Part shown: in pieces, positions 23,520 to 26,599 of the stretch
Position numbering within the stretch: the first letter of the stretch is position 1
Layout: each line of letters begins with the position of its first letter
Origin: Desulfuromonas sp.
GTDB lineage: Bacteria > Desulfobacterota > Desulfuromonadia > Desulfuromonadales > Geopsychrobacteraceae
Assembly: GCA_002868865.1 (NCBI GenBank)
Contig: PKUC01000056.1
Location: 1 to 43,575 of the forward strand
DNA length: 43,575 nt
Direction: 5' to 3'
Notes under the pieces: model-generated
Seen by the model: the letters and a program-made list of their open reading frames with translations, nothing else
Told to the model about the DNA's origin: nothing
The model's database searches: none
Made by a program: the position numbers and the translations under genes

Positions 23520-23660
23520 GGTCTGACTCCGTTGGCTGTTTGGCGGGGCGCTTCATCTCTTTGCCAACACTTACCCCGCCGGGGTTAAAATGTCCAGAGG
23601 GCAGGGCGGTGCTGATCAGTTTGCTTGTCACCGGGACCCTGCAACGAGTATAGTCCCCTG

Positions 23661-24602
23661 ATGACCGATATGGCATTAAAAATAGATCGCCTGTGCAAAT
23701 CGTTTGCCGATGTCCCGGTGGTTAAGGATATCAGTTTTGCGATTCGTCAGGGGGAGATTTTCGGCCTGCTCGGTCCCAACGGAGCGGGCAAGAGCACCAC
23801 GATCAATATGATCGCCGGGGTGACGCGGGTCGGTTCCGGGTCGATCGAAGCCTACGGCTACGATAACCAGCGCGATTACCGGGTCACCCGCCGTCTGTTG
23901 GGTGTGGTTCATCAGGAAGTGGTGATCGATAATTTTTTTACCGTCGAGCAGGCCCTGAAGCTGCACGCTGGATACTACGGGATAAAGGATGATCCGGCCT
24001 GGCGGCAGATGCTCATCGAACGGCTGGGGCTTGCTCCGCACCTGCACAAGGTTATGATCAAGTTGTCCGGTGGCTTGAAGCGGCGCTTTATGATCGCTAA
24101 GGCACTGATCCATCGGCCCCGCCTGCTGATCCTGGACGAGCCGACCGCAGGGGTTGACGTCGAACTGCGCCACAGCCTGTGGGATTTTGTCCGCGACATC
24201 AACGCGCGGGGTACGACGATTCTGCTCACCACCCACTACCTTGAAGAGGCCGAGCAGATGTGTGACCGTATCGCGATTATGAATCATGGTGACCTGATCG
24301 CGCTGGAATCGACCCGCGACCTGGTCGATCGCCTGTCACGACGGCGTGTGCGGGTCTGTCTCGATCAGCCTCTGCGTACGGTACCGGATGTCCTGGCAGA
24401 TTATCAACCACAGATCGGTGACGAGGGTCGTGAGCTGAAACTCGACCTGCCTGTCGATGGCACCGCCGGCGCATTGCTCAAAGAACTGTGCGGGCTGGGG
24501 CTGTCGATCCGCGACCTTGAGACGGAGCAGAGCAGTCTGGAAGAGGTCTTTCTGCAGCTAACGGGAATCGACCAGACACGGGATACGCAGGATGAACGCT
24601 GA
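23661..24602 (+). CDS. ABC-2 type exporter ATP-binding protein (YadG-like)
   Basis: The 313-residue ATPase has the standard order: Walker A GPNGAGKST (about 38-46), Q-loop region HQE, signature LSGGLKRRFMIAKAL (about 135), Walker B LLILDEPTAGVD (about 155-165) and the H-loop in TTHYLEEAEQMCDRIAIMNHG. The C-terminal extension of about 90 residues is usual for the DrrA/NodI/YadG group. ATG 23661 is chosen; a GTG at 23625 and an ATG at 23670 are alternatives and none has a clear ribosome-binding site. It overlaps the permease gene by 11 bases. The pair should form a two-component exporter; the substrate is unknown. Confidence 0.92.
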   Translation: MTDMALKIDRLCKSFADVPVVKDISFAIRQGEIFGLLGPNGAGKSTTINMIAGVTRVGSGSIEAYGYDNQRDYRVTRRLLGVVHQEVVIDNFFTVEQALKLHAGYYGIKDDPAWRQMLIERLGLAPHLHKVMIKLSGGLKRRFMIAKALIHRPRLLILDEPTAGVDVELRHSLWDFVRDINARGTTILLTTHYLEEAEQMCDRIAIMNHGDLIALESTRDLVDRLSRRRVRVCLDQPLRTVPDVLADYQPQIGDEGRELKLDLPVDGTAGALLKELCGLGLSIRDLETEQSSLEEVFLQLTGIDQTRDTQDER

Positions 24603-25383
24603 GTATCGACAGGGACGATTTTACAGCTGGTTGCCCTTTTTCACCCTGCTGCGCAAGGAGATCCTGCGGTTCTGGCGGGTGGCGTCGCAGACCCTGCTGA
24701 CCCCGATCATCACCGCATCCCTCTACCTGTTTGTGTTCGGTGCAACCCTGGGAGATCGCCTGAGTGTCCTGGAGGGGTTCAGTTACGCCCAGTTCGTGAT
24801 TCCCGGCCTGATCCTGATGGGTATCATCAACAACTCCTTCGCCAACACCTCGTCGTCGTTGTTTATGTCACGCTATCTCGGCGGCATAGTCGACCTGCTG
24901 GTGACGCCGGTCAGTCCGCCTCAGTTTATTCTCGCCTATACCCTGGCGGCAATGCTGCGTGGTCTGGCGGTGGGGCTGGTGGTCTGGTTGATTTCGACAC
25001 TGTTTGCCCATCTGCCGTGGGTGGCACCGTTACAGGCGCTAATGATGGCCGTTCTGGCCAGCTTTCTGTTCACTCAGTTCGGACTTATCGCTGCGATCTA
25101 CGCGCATAATTTTGACACCCTGTCGATGTACAGCAATTTTCTGCTGTTGCCGCTGATCTACCTGGGGGGGGTCTTCTATCCTATTTCGATCCTTCCGCCG
25201 TTCTGGGCGAAATTGTCCCTTCTCAATCCGCTCTTTTATCTGATCGATGGTTTCCGCCATGCGATCCTCGGTGTTGGAGATATTTCGTTTTTAACCGCAT
25301 TTCTGGTCAGTGGTGCGCTGGCGCTGGCCTTGTTCTGCTGGGCTGCCTGGCTGATTGGTAGCGGCTATCGACTGCGCAGTTGA
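24592..25383 (+). CDS. ABC-2 type exporter permease (YadH-like)
   Basis: The 263-residue integral membrane protein has about six transmembrane helices and the ABC-2 pattern: a short cytoplasmic N-terminus with LLRKEILRFWR, then TLLTPIITASLYLFVFG, and the conserved stretch LPLIYLGGVFYPISILPPFW near residue 185. It partners the overlapping ATPase. Its start lies inside the end of the ATPase gene, indicating translational coupling. The selenoprotein gene starts 18 bases after its stop, so the operon continues. Substrate is unknown; relatives export antibiotics, lipids or polysaccharide. Confidence 0.92.
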   Translation: MNAEYRQGRFYSWLPFFTLLRKEILRFWRVASQTLLTPIITASLYLFVFGATLGDRLSVLEGFSYAQFVIPGLILMGIINNSFANTSSSLFMSRYLGGIVDLLVTPVSPPQFILAYTLAAMLRGLAVGLVVWLISTLFAHLPWVAPLQALMMAVLASFLFTQFGLIAAIYAHNFDTLSMYSNFLLLPLIYLGGVFYPISILPPFWAKLSLLNPLFYLIDGFRHAILGVGDISFLTAFLVSGALALALFCWAAWLIGSGYRLRS

Positions 25384-25401
25384 TCGAAACAGGAGGAGAT
25401 C

Positions 25402-25674
25402 ATGTTGAATGATCCGCACGCACAGGCGTTTCGCGATTTTTATGATGGCATGCGCAACTCTGTTCTGGAGGACAAAACCAGGACTCTGGTGGGGTTGGCC
25501 GCGGCGATGGCCGTCGGTTGCGAGCCCTGAATGGATCATTACCTTAGCGTTGCTAGGGATCAGCAGGTGAGTGCCGACGAAATCAGTGCGGTACAGGGGA
25601 TGGTGATGGCGGTTTCGGCGGGACGGGTCAATTCTCAGATGAAACGCGTCGAGGCCGGTGCGGGAAACTCTTAA
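25402..25674 (+). CDS. Probable selenoprotein, AhpD-like / carboxymuconolactone-decarboxylase family (in-frame TGA = Sec43)
   Basis: The ATG at 25402 has AGGAGGAG upstream (25391-25398). The frame is open to a TGA at 25528-25530 (codon 43), then continues in the same frame to TAA at 25672-25674. Read through, it gives 90 residues with AAAMAVGCEPUMDHYLSVARD at the TGA. This is the redox motif of AhpD-like proteins (GCEPCMDHYL in cysteine forms), with selenocysteine replacing the second cysteine: C40-E-P-U43 with His46. The downstream part (VSADEISAVQGMVMAVSAGRV) is typical of the same family, so homology crosses the TGA. A SECIS-like hairpin begins directly after it. The protein is probably a thiol oxidoreductase or peroxidase-type enzyme. 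It lies between the ABC permease and hslO (46 bases upstream of hslO). Simple annotation would report a truncated ORF. Confidence 0.85.
25534..25561 (+). promoter_or_regulatory. SECIS-like hairpin for selenocysteine insertion
   Basis: CCTTAGC (25542-25548) pairs with GCTAGGG (25552-25558), one T-G wobble, around the loop GTT at 25549-25551. GAT (25534-25536) and ATC (25559-25561) extend the stem across a 5-base bulge. The loop begins 18 bases after the TGA and starts with G, which fits the usual rules for bacterial SECIS elements (a short stem, a small loop with an early G, 16-37 bases after UGA). The hairpin lies wholly in coding sequence. Confidence 0.7.
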
Positions 25675-25720: not shown

Positions 25721-26599
25721 ATGGACAATCAGGGACGCTTGGTCAGGGTGGTGTCTGACGATGGCCTGTTTCGGGCGATGGCCGTTGATAGCAGCAGCGT
25801 TGTCGCCGAGGTGTGCCGTCGACAGCAGACCGATCTGACCGCAACGGTCGCACTGGGGCGACTGCTCACCGCGGGGGCGCTGCTCGGCTGTTTGCTCAAG
25901 GGAACGCAGCGTCTGGCCCTGATGGTGGAAGGGAACGGTCCTCTCGGCCGACTTGCCGTCGAGACCGACGCCACAGGGCGTCTGCGTGGTTCCGTGCGGA
26001 ATCCGCGCGCCGATCTGCCGCCGCGTGATGGTCGCTTTGATGTCTCCGGAGCGATCGGCCGGGCCGGCTTTCTCCATGTGACAAAAGATCTGGGGCTCAA
26101 AGAACCCTATCGCAGTATGGTCCAGTTGCAGACCAGTGAAATTGGCGACGACCTGGCTTATTACCTGTCCACATCGGAACAGGTCCCTTCCTCGGTGGCG
26201 GTCGGTGTTGAGTTGGCGAAAGATGGTTCGGTCGCGGCAGCGGGCGGTTTTATCGTACAGGCCCTGCCGCCCGGCAATGTCGATGCTATCGCGCAGCTGG
26301 AGGTACGGCTCGGAGAGTTGCCGCCTACCACGACCATGCTGCGTGACGGGCTGTCGCCAGCGGAGATAATGTCTGCCATCTTTGCCCCGCGTCGCTTTGC
26401 GGTTCAGGCCGAAACATCCGTGGAGTTTTTCTGTCCCTGCACCCGCATGCAGATTGAGCGTGTCCTGATCGGCCTCGGCCGCCAGGAGCTGCAGTCCCAG
26501 CTGGAAGAGCAGGAGGAAATTCAGGTCACCTGTGAATACTGCAAGGAGGTTTACCCGTTCACAAAAAGCGAGCTGGAAGCGCTGATTCGGAGCCTCTGA
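25721..26599 (+). CDS. hslO: Redox-regulated chaperone Hsp33
   Basis: The 292-residue protein is Hsp33, a cytoplasmic holdase switched on by oxidative unfolding. The N-terminal domain (about 1-180) is typical, with ALGRLLTAGALLG and the LALMVEGNGPLG segment. The C-terminal redox switch is complete: C238-P-C240 and C271-E-Y-C274, the zinc-binding CxC...CxxC arrangement. AGGAAA precedes ATG 25721. It follows the selenoprotein gene by 46 bases on the same strand, so the two are probably cotranscribed, tying the operon to thiol/oxidant stress. No terminator with a strong T run was found after it. Confidence 0.97.
   Translation: MDNQGRLVRVVSDDGLFRAMAVDSSSVVAEVCRRQQTDLTATVALGRLLTAGALLGCLLKGTQRLALMVEGNGPLGRLAVETDATGRLRGSVRNPRADLPPRDGRFDVSGAIGRAGFLHVTKDLGLKEPYRSMVQLQTSEIGDDLAYYLSTSEQVPSSVAVGVELAKDGSVAAAGGFIVQALPPGNVDAIAQLEVRLGELPPTTTMLRDGLSPAEIMSAIFAPRRFAVQAETSVEFFCPCTRMQIERVLIGLGRQELQSQLEEQEEIQVTCEYCKEVYPFTKSELEALIRSL

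What the first reader, a model, noticed from the sequence alone, without database searches (positions are those of the whole stretch)
25402..25674. Overlooked selenoprotein: AhpD-like protein with CxxU motif and a SECIS-like hairpin
Seen: a strong ribosome-binding site, an open frame interrupted only by TGA at codon 43, continuation in the same frame to a normal stop, a motif GCEPUMDHYL where the TGA replaces the second redox cysteine, and a stem-loop whose loop starts 18 bases after the TGA. Known: AhpD-like proteins exist as selenoproteins and Desulfuromonadales encode selenocysteine machinery. Inference: the TGA is decoded as selenocysteine and the protein is a peroxide- or disulfide-handling enzyme. 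Both halves are too short to be called alone.
Basis: partly seen in the sequence, partly recalled or inferred. Interest (0 to 1): 0.8.

Follow-up and report, generated by a model that had tools for sequence, protein, structure and literature searches.

The report
Overlooked small selenoprotein with conserved SECIS
A short gene that looks broken by a stop codon very probably encodes a small selenium-containing redox protein, and the same gene with the same recoding signal recurs in many related bacteria, where it often sits beside selenium-, arsenic- or mercury-handling genes.

Summary
Window 25402-25674 (+) encodes a 90-residue CMD/AhpD-fold protein whose codon 43 is an in-frame TGA in the motif C-E-P-U. 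The genome holds selA, selB, selD and tRNA-Sec over their cut-offs. Of 67 distinct family members pooled from four searches, 60 have TGA at that codon, 5 TGC (Cys), 1 TTA, and 1 is frameshifted. After the TGA comes a 7-bp stem with a G-U-N triloop, 18 nt downstream. In 54 relatives' sequences it is 98.9% paired and covaries, against 20-60% for slid pairings; none of the 5 Cys genes has it. This is a bacterial SECIS. CxxU selenoproteins of Pfam CMD are already known, so this is a new subfamily of a known kind; no NCBIfam model reaches cut-off for the window's protein, and its best matches are the C-terminal domains of MduS and ArsM-AhpD. More interesting is the neighbourhood: between an ABC exporter and hslO (Hsp33) in the window's family, directly upstream of selA(-selB) in a sister clade, beside arsM or hgcA in some distant members. 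Best reading: a selenol/thiol oxidoreductase of unknown substrate; classical AhpD peroxidase chemistry is doubtful.

The parts
25391..25396 (+). Shine-Dalgarno AGGAGG
   Evidence: Sequence; SD-like runs precede many orthologues
25402..25674 (+). Selenoprotein gene, CMD/AhpD fold, 90 residues, ends TAA
   Evidence: Pfam CMD PF02627 44.4 bits against cut-off 23
25519..25530 (+). Redox motif C40-E-P-U43 (codons TGC GAG CCC TGA)
   Evidence: C40, P42 and U/C43 invariant in the 33 rows of A2 (L060 with Leu was not in A2); TGA in 60, TGC in 5, TTA in 1 of 66 resolved rows
25528..25530 (+). Recoded TGA (selenocysteine), codon 43
25542..25558 (+). bSECIS: 7-bp stem 25542-25548 / 25552-25558, apical loop GUU 25549-25551, 18 nt after UGA
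23625..24602 (+). ABC transporter ATPase (best NCBIfam matches DrrA/NodI-like, below their cut-offs), conserved neighbour; stop TGA
24592..25383 (+). ABC-2 type permease, conserved neighbour; ends in an ordinary TGA stop 18 nt before the selenoprotein start
   Evidence: NF011648 254.2 bits over 225
25721..26599 (+). hslO, Hsp33 family chaperone, conserved neighbour; stop TGA
   Evidence: NF001033 282.6 bits over 244

Best explanation
The gene encodes a small all-helical CMD/AhpD-fold selenoprotein. Its in-frame UGA at codon 43 is decoded as selenocysteine by SelB and tRNA-Sec, directed by a 7-bp GU-triloop SECIS just downstream (strong comparative evidence; no direct evidence). Cys40 and Sec43 of the C-x-P-U motif most likely form a selenenylsulfide pair that carries out thiol/disulfide or peroxide reduction (inferred). 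The physiological substrate is unknown. In this lineage the gene is probably co-transcribed with an ABC exporter and hslO (Hsp33), which suggests a role in thiol or oxidant stress (inferred).
For: Machinery in the same genome: selA 592.5 bits (cut-off 267.9), selB 360 (242.25), selD 347.9 (125), tRNA-Sec 76.6 (47; ARAGORN anticodon tca). Same-site TGA: 60 of 67 distinct family rows; 5 TGC, 1 TTA, 1 frameshifted. SECIS on 54 sequences without the window: 98.9% of 378 cells paired, 5 of 7 pairs with changes on both sides; 0 of 500 shuffles as high on cells paired, on cells changed on both sides and on the covariation score, 1 of 500 for pairs changed on both sides, 7 of 500 for further pair types; slid versions 20-60%. 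In 57 of 60 TGA rows the minimum-energy fold has a 3-nt loop at exactly this place, 55 with all 7 pairs. 0 of 5 Cys genes have it. The Leu codon in the stem is CTT in 48 and CTC in 6 of 54 Leu rows (6 more rows have Phe), never CTG, though CTG is 40.7% and CTT 13.9% of Leu codons in long same-strand open frames nearby (the printed labels there are off by one codon). Protein-level constraint continues past the TGA: pooled pN/pS 0.22/0.64 downstream, 0.28/0.68 upstream, reversed in the other two frames (pairs not independent). UGA is otherwise a stop: the ABC ATPase, ABC permease and Hsp33 genes beside it end in TGA. Fold: AlphaFold2 mean pLDDT 89.6; best PDB matches are the CMD/AhpD proteins 7y4r (RclX) and 3bey.
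Against: No experiment was possible. The window's own hairpin is not more stable than synonymous shuffles (z -0.1), and its bare-stem energy is 0.1 kcal/mol short of the published limit; 46 of 60 TGA rows meet all four limits in that strict coding. Three of 45 family-bearing genomes of the order lack selA over cut-off (G017, G024, G027), all drafts of 340-590 contigs, though G027 is rated 96% complete. The gene is dispensable: 21 genomes of the family have no intact copy; Hsp33 was found in 16 of them, and in 11 of these 16 the permease lies next to Hsp33 with only 28-141 nt between, 7 of the 11 genomes being selA-positive. So the functional tie to Hsp33 and the exporter is loose.
Confidence: 0.93

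Rival explanations
1. A decayed CMD gene (pseudogene) in which TGA is a real stop.
For: Decayed copies exist in relatives: G029 has a remnant with stops and frame breaks, G034 a frameshifted copy, and G030 (row L088) a TAA upstream of its TGA.
Against: 60 of 67 distinct rows share TGA at one codon; in none of the resolved rows does the matched stretch hold another stop upstream of the site (for L088 the match begins after its TAA); purifying selection downstream equals that upstream; covarying SECIS.
Confidence: 0.02
2. TGA is a sequencing or assembly error for TGC/TGT and the protein is an ordinary CxPC CMD protein.
For: Five homologues carry TGC.
Against: The same TGA occurs in the single-contig genome G016 and in the isolate Malonomonas rubra DSM 5091 (L068). 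The 5 Cys genes lack the hairpin, which 56 of 60 TGA rows can form with all 7 pairs and the other 4 with 6.
Confidence: 0.01
3. The UGA is read through but by another route (suppression, or Trp/Cys insertion), not as selenocysteine.
For: Amino-acid identity was not measured.
Against: UGA is a normal stop in the neighbouring genes, and 14 of 17 selA-linked copies of this very gene appear to end in TGA; Sec machinery is present and a bSECIS is conserved.
Confidence: 0.03
4. The SECIS-bearing gene acts mainly as a regulatory leader (selenium or SelB sensing) for downstream genes rather than as an enzyme.
For: In a sister clade it is the cistron directly upstream of selA in 17 of 67 rows, with selB seen behind selA in 16 of the 17. 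SECIS RNA in translational control in E. coli is on record (Thanbichler and Bock 2002, seen only as a title in a reference list and a one-line mention of SelB autoregulation in PMC8124441; that it concerns the selAB leader is recalled).
Against: Protein sequence conserved with invariant active-site residues; in the window the gene is not next to selA, which is on another contig; selA has its own ribosome-binding site in most rows.
Confidence: 0.08

Closest known systems
CMD-like (PF02627) CxxU selenoprotein, 'AhpD-like 2' of the GOS survey (PMC2398784; a CMD-like CxxU entry also in PMC9312934 and PMC13188914; that these are one family is my reading)
   Same: Same Pfam family and same CxxU motif.
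   Different: The listed example MBW1767730.1 was not compared, so whether it belongs to this subfamily is open. The passages I read mention no Hsp33, selA, arsM or hgcA linkage.
MduS (NF045649) and ArsM/AhpD-domain selenoprotein (NF041537)
   Same: Their C-terminal AhpD part is the best NCBIfam match of the window protein (E 2e-15 and 2.2e-11); 33 of 33 members of A2 match both models at E 0.01.
   Different: The window protein lacks the methyltransferase domain and scores 56.6 and 43.1 bits against cut-offs of 380 and 510. A true MduS of the order (L140) scores 553.7.
GSU3128 family (seleno)protein (NF041047); a CxxU 'distant AhpD homolog' with this model in PMC13188914
   Same: Small CMD-fold CxxU selenoprotein.
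   Different: The window protein has 31.7 bits against cut-off 110, while L028 with motif CPDU has 138.8. G039 and G040 each carry both this family's gene and a CPDU gene.
RclX (PDB 7y4r); RclX of Pseudomonas aeruginosa in PMC7950407
   Same: Nearest solved structure by Foldseek and second by sequence. The P. aeruginosa rclX gene is needed against HOCl and HOSCN and encodes an AhpD-like protein with CXXC (passages read). That 7y4r is this protein is assumed from the name.
   Different: CxxC not CxxU, longer, about 21% identity.

Membership tests
Carboxymuconolactone decarboxylase family (Pfam PF02627) | Score over the gathering cut-off | tested here: met
   44.4 bits against 23, residues 7-72
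Carboxymuconolactone decarboxylase family (Pfam PF02627) | All-helical CMD/AhpD fold | tested here: met
   AlphaFold2 mean pLDDT 89.6; the top 25 Foldseek rows are CMD/AhpD-type entries, though only 1 of 83 matches has E at or below 0.001 and rmsd in those rows is 3.5-7.3 A
Bacterial selenoproteins | In-frame UGA aligned with Cys of homologues | tested here: met
   60 TGA, 5 TGC at the same codon
Bacterial selenoproteins | bSECIS: loop 3-9 nt, stem 4-16 bp, G in the first two loop positions, spacing 16-37 nt (limits from PMC13188914) | tested here: met
   Loop GUU, 7 bp, 18 nt
Bacterial selenoproteins | bSECIS free energy at or below -7.5 kcal/mol | tested here: inconclusive
   -7.4 for the bare stem, -10.7 for the 45 nt after UGA
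Bacterial selenoproteins | SelA, SelB, SelD, tRNA-Sec in the genome | tested here: met
Bacterial selenoproteins | Selenium in the purified protein | not testable with these tools
   Needs 75Se or mass spectrometry
GSU3128 family (NF041047) | Score over the equivalog cut-off | tested here: not met
   31.7 against 110
MduS (NF045649) | Methyltransferase domain and score over cut-off | tested here: not met
   56.6 against 380, profile positions 232-308 only
AhpD alkylhydroperoxidase (M. tuberculosis type) | CxxC-type redox pair | tested here: met
   C40 and U43
AhpD alkylhydroperoxidase (M. tuberculosis type) | Proton-relay Glu before the motif and His four residues after the second redox residue (recalled) | tested here: inconclusive
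   Aligned with 7y4r, not with AhpD itself: the Glu of KTREL falls on a non-acidic residue (Thr in the window) and the +4 His on Tyr; the family's His is at +3

The most novel reading that the evidence does not exclude
In the sister clade the SECIS-bearing gene is a natural selenium gauge: recoding of its UGA, or capture of SelB by its SECIS, sets expression of the downstream selA-selB, so a true selenoprotein gene doubles as the feedback leader of the selenocysteine machinery. In other lineages the same protein became the redox partner of arsenic or mercury methylation enzymes (ArsM, HgcA).
Probability: 0.1. Interest if true: 0.7.

Novelty: new member of a known kind. Interest (0 to 1): 0.42.

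Why it matters
The gene is easily missed by ordinary gene calling, because its two halves are short, and no NCBIfam 20.0 model reaches cut-off for the window's protein, while the same library does recognise the GSU3128 and MduS relatives. Recognising it adds a conserved selenoprotein subfamily in the Desulfuromonadales and beyond. Its linkage to selA-selB in one clade, to arsM or hgcA in some distant members and to Hsp33 here gives testable routes to the function of CMD-type selenoproteins; for the AhpD-like ones found beside other selenoprotein genes, the 2026 review (section 9) says the exact functions are unknown.

Tried and rejected
Rejected: pseudogene, sequencing error and non-Sec readthrough (see rivals). 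Rfam at gathering threshold found nothing in the window. The single-protein scan of genome contigs confirmed no relative; the alignment scan found 39 loci. Hairpin stability against synonymous shuffles is a weak test here (mean z -1.17 for 60 TGA rows, +0.13 for 5 Cys rows) and was not relied on. The PADLOC scan was empty. One search translated minus-strand loci on the wrong strand and was replaced.

Rows dropped before the count of 67 (under 80 bits, or the same protein twice): partial or frameshifted L026/L092 (G034), L089 (Cys, partial), L090 (Sec, partial), L091 (partial), L130 (G134, frameshifted, near selA); more distant CMD proteins with Cys L002, L032, L157, L158; CPDU proteins L027-L031 and L145; MduS-like L140-L144. 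L087 (G124) is in the 67 but has no resolved codon. L088 (G030) is counted as TGA although only its later part matches. For the 54-row SECIS alignment the window, L054 and 4 repeats of the same 30 nt were left out.

Full report
Observation. The frame 25402-25674 (+) has a strong ribosome-binding site, one in-frame TGA at codon 43 and a TAA stop, giving a 90-residue protein with the motif GCEPUMDHYL. It is not among the listed ORFs of 60 aa or more. Read through, it is a CMD-family protein (PF02627, 44.4 bits against a cut-off of 23).

Machinery. The window's genome (2.66 Mb, 109 contigs) has selA, selB and selD side by side on contig C34, all over their cut-offs, and tRNA-Sec with anticodon tca. 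UGA is otherwise a stop: the ABC ATPase, the ABC permease and Hsp33 in the same cluster end in TGA.

Relatives. In the family as grouped by the tool (44 genomes) 27 have a match at E 0.001 or better; 22 are full-length and each carries exactly one TGA, and a 23rd (G030) is partial with TGA. The TGA is at the same column in 22 of 22 aligned rows. In the order, 45 of 136 genomes have a member at E 1e-18 or better; 42 of those 45 have selA over cut-off, against 72 of the other 91. In a phylum sample 14 of 395 genomes match at E 1e-15, the window's own included. Pooling the loci gives 67 distinct rows of 80 bits or more: 60 TGA, 5 TGC, 1 TTA and 1 frameshifted. Named carriers include Desulfuromonas, Geopsychrobacter, Desulfuromusa and the isolate Malonomonas rubra DSM 5091, and distant ones in Desulfobacterales, Terriglobia and a Zixiibacteriota bin. 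The nearest named relative of the window is Desulfuromonas sp. BM509 (L054, 69% identity).

SECIS. In 57 of 60 TGA rows the minimum-energy fold of the 45 nt after UGA has a 3-nt loop starting 18 nt downstream, in 55 with the full 7-bp stem; 56 can form all 7 pairs and the other 4 six. The loop is GTG, GTC or GTT in 55 of 56 distinct sequences and GGG in one. On 54 sequences that exclude the window and its closest relative, 98.9% of cells pair, five of seven pairs show changes on both sides, and 0 of 500 shuffles reach the covariation score; sliding the partner by 1-3 columns gives 20-60%. The window itself shows one such change (an A-U pair where most rows have G-C). None of the five Cys genes has the hairpin, while the one Leu (TTA) row does. 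The stem overrides codon preference: Leu there is CTT (48) or CTC (6) in 54 Leu rows, while CTG is the commonest Leu codon nearby (40.7%). Against this, the window's hairpin alone is unremarkable: bare stem -7.4 kcal/mol, z -0.1 against synonymous shuffles, and 56 of 1543 TGAs in the window meet the general limits as coded. The limits come from PMC13188914 (passages read).

Selection. Pooled over all 1770 pairs of TGA rows (not independent), pN/pS is 0.22/0.64 downstream of the TGA and 0.28/0.68 upstream; read in the two other frames the downstream DNA gives pN above pS. So the part after the TGA is kept as protein.

Neighbourhood. In 23 of 67 rows (the window's kind) the order is ABC permease, selenoprotein, hslO/Hsp33, with the ABC ATPase upstream in all but L055, which is at a contig end (identities of the window's genes). 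In 17 of 67 rows the gene lies directly upstream of selA, with selB behind it in 16; selA starts 30-48 nt after its stop, in most rows behind an SD-like run. These 17 form one side of a branch (support 93/88, not starred). For the remaining rows I scanned only chosen neighbours: over cut-off are arsenite methyltransferase in three (L148, L153, L081) and HgcA in four (L146 with HgcB, L069, L073, L078; the last three are Cys forms); L083 has an ArsC-like protein below cut-off; the neighbours of L084 (a racemase), L152, L074, L077 and L134 showed nothing of this kind, and the others were not scanned. The arsM link agrees with the best NCBIfam matches, the C-terminal AhpD parts of MduS and of the ArsM/AhpD selenoprotein. 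In the 21 family genomes without an intact copy (G030 not among them), Hsp33 was found in 16; in 11 of those the permease lies next to hslO with 28-141 nt between, in one (G029) a decayed remnant remains, in one (G034) a frameshifted copy, and in three the permease was not seen. Seven of the 11 still have selA, so the gene is accessory even among selenocysteine users.

Structure and function. AlphaFold2 gives four helices with mean pLDDT 89.6. The nearest solved structures are RclX (7y4r) and a methanogen protein (3bey). RclX protects P. aeruginosa against HOCl and HOSCN (PMC7950407, passages read). Residues aligned with the AhpD proton relay (recalled) are not in place, so I favour selenol/thiol oxidoreductase chemistry over classical AhpD peroxidase. 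The substrate is unknown.

Known or new. CxxU selenoproteins of PF02627 were listed in 2008 ('AhpD-like 2', PMC2398784) and a CMD-like CxxU family in 2022 and 2026 (PMC9312934, PMC13188914; passages read). I could not compare with the listed example. No NCBIfam model reaches cut-off for the window protein, whereas a CPDU relative and a fused relative reach those of GSU3128 and MduS. My ten full-text searches listed no paper that I recognised as describing the linkages; selA, selAB and HgcB were among the terms, Hsp33 and arsM were not (Hsp33 was only looked for inside PMC1794560, PMC13188914 and PMC9312934, with no occurrence). I read passages of nine papers, none whole. Hence a new member (a subfamily I found no model for) of a known kind, with unusual genomic company.

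Noticed in passing
L033 (G000:C96) and L034 (G000:C101): tRNA-Sec stands at the very end of two contigs, 4 bases from each edge: either two copies or an assembly break at the tRNA.
   Followed up: partly
L050 (G000:C34:6297-7220): selD of the window's genome itself has one in-frame TGA, in the context SGUAAKIGP, so SelD is probably a selenoprotein too.
   Followed up: partly
L060 (G132:C144), 1468-1725: selA-linked copy with TTA (Leu) at the Sec codon but an intact SECIS hairpin: recent loss or a base error.
   Followed up: partly
L146, L069, L073, L078: A CMD gene (Sec in L146, Cys in the other three) lies downstream of hgcA (with hgcB between in L146), the mercury methylation genes.
   Followed up: partly
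L140-L144 (G084, G093, G107, G129, G088): Longer frames (227-347 aa) with an in-frame TGA and a related CMD domain, CxPU motif; L140, the one scanned, is an MduS (553.7 bits over 380).
   Followed up: partly
L027-L031, L145: A second small CMD protein with motif CPDU and in-frame TGA in G039-G043 and G069; L028, the one scanned, is in the GSU3128 family (138.8 bits over 110).
   Followed up: partly
L166 (G029:C142) 1205-1327: Decayed remnant of the gene between the ABC permease and hslO, with stops and frame breaks.
   Followed up: yes
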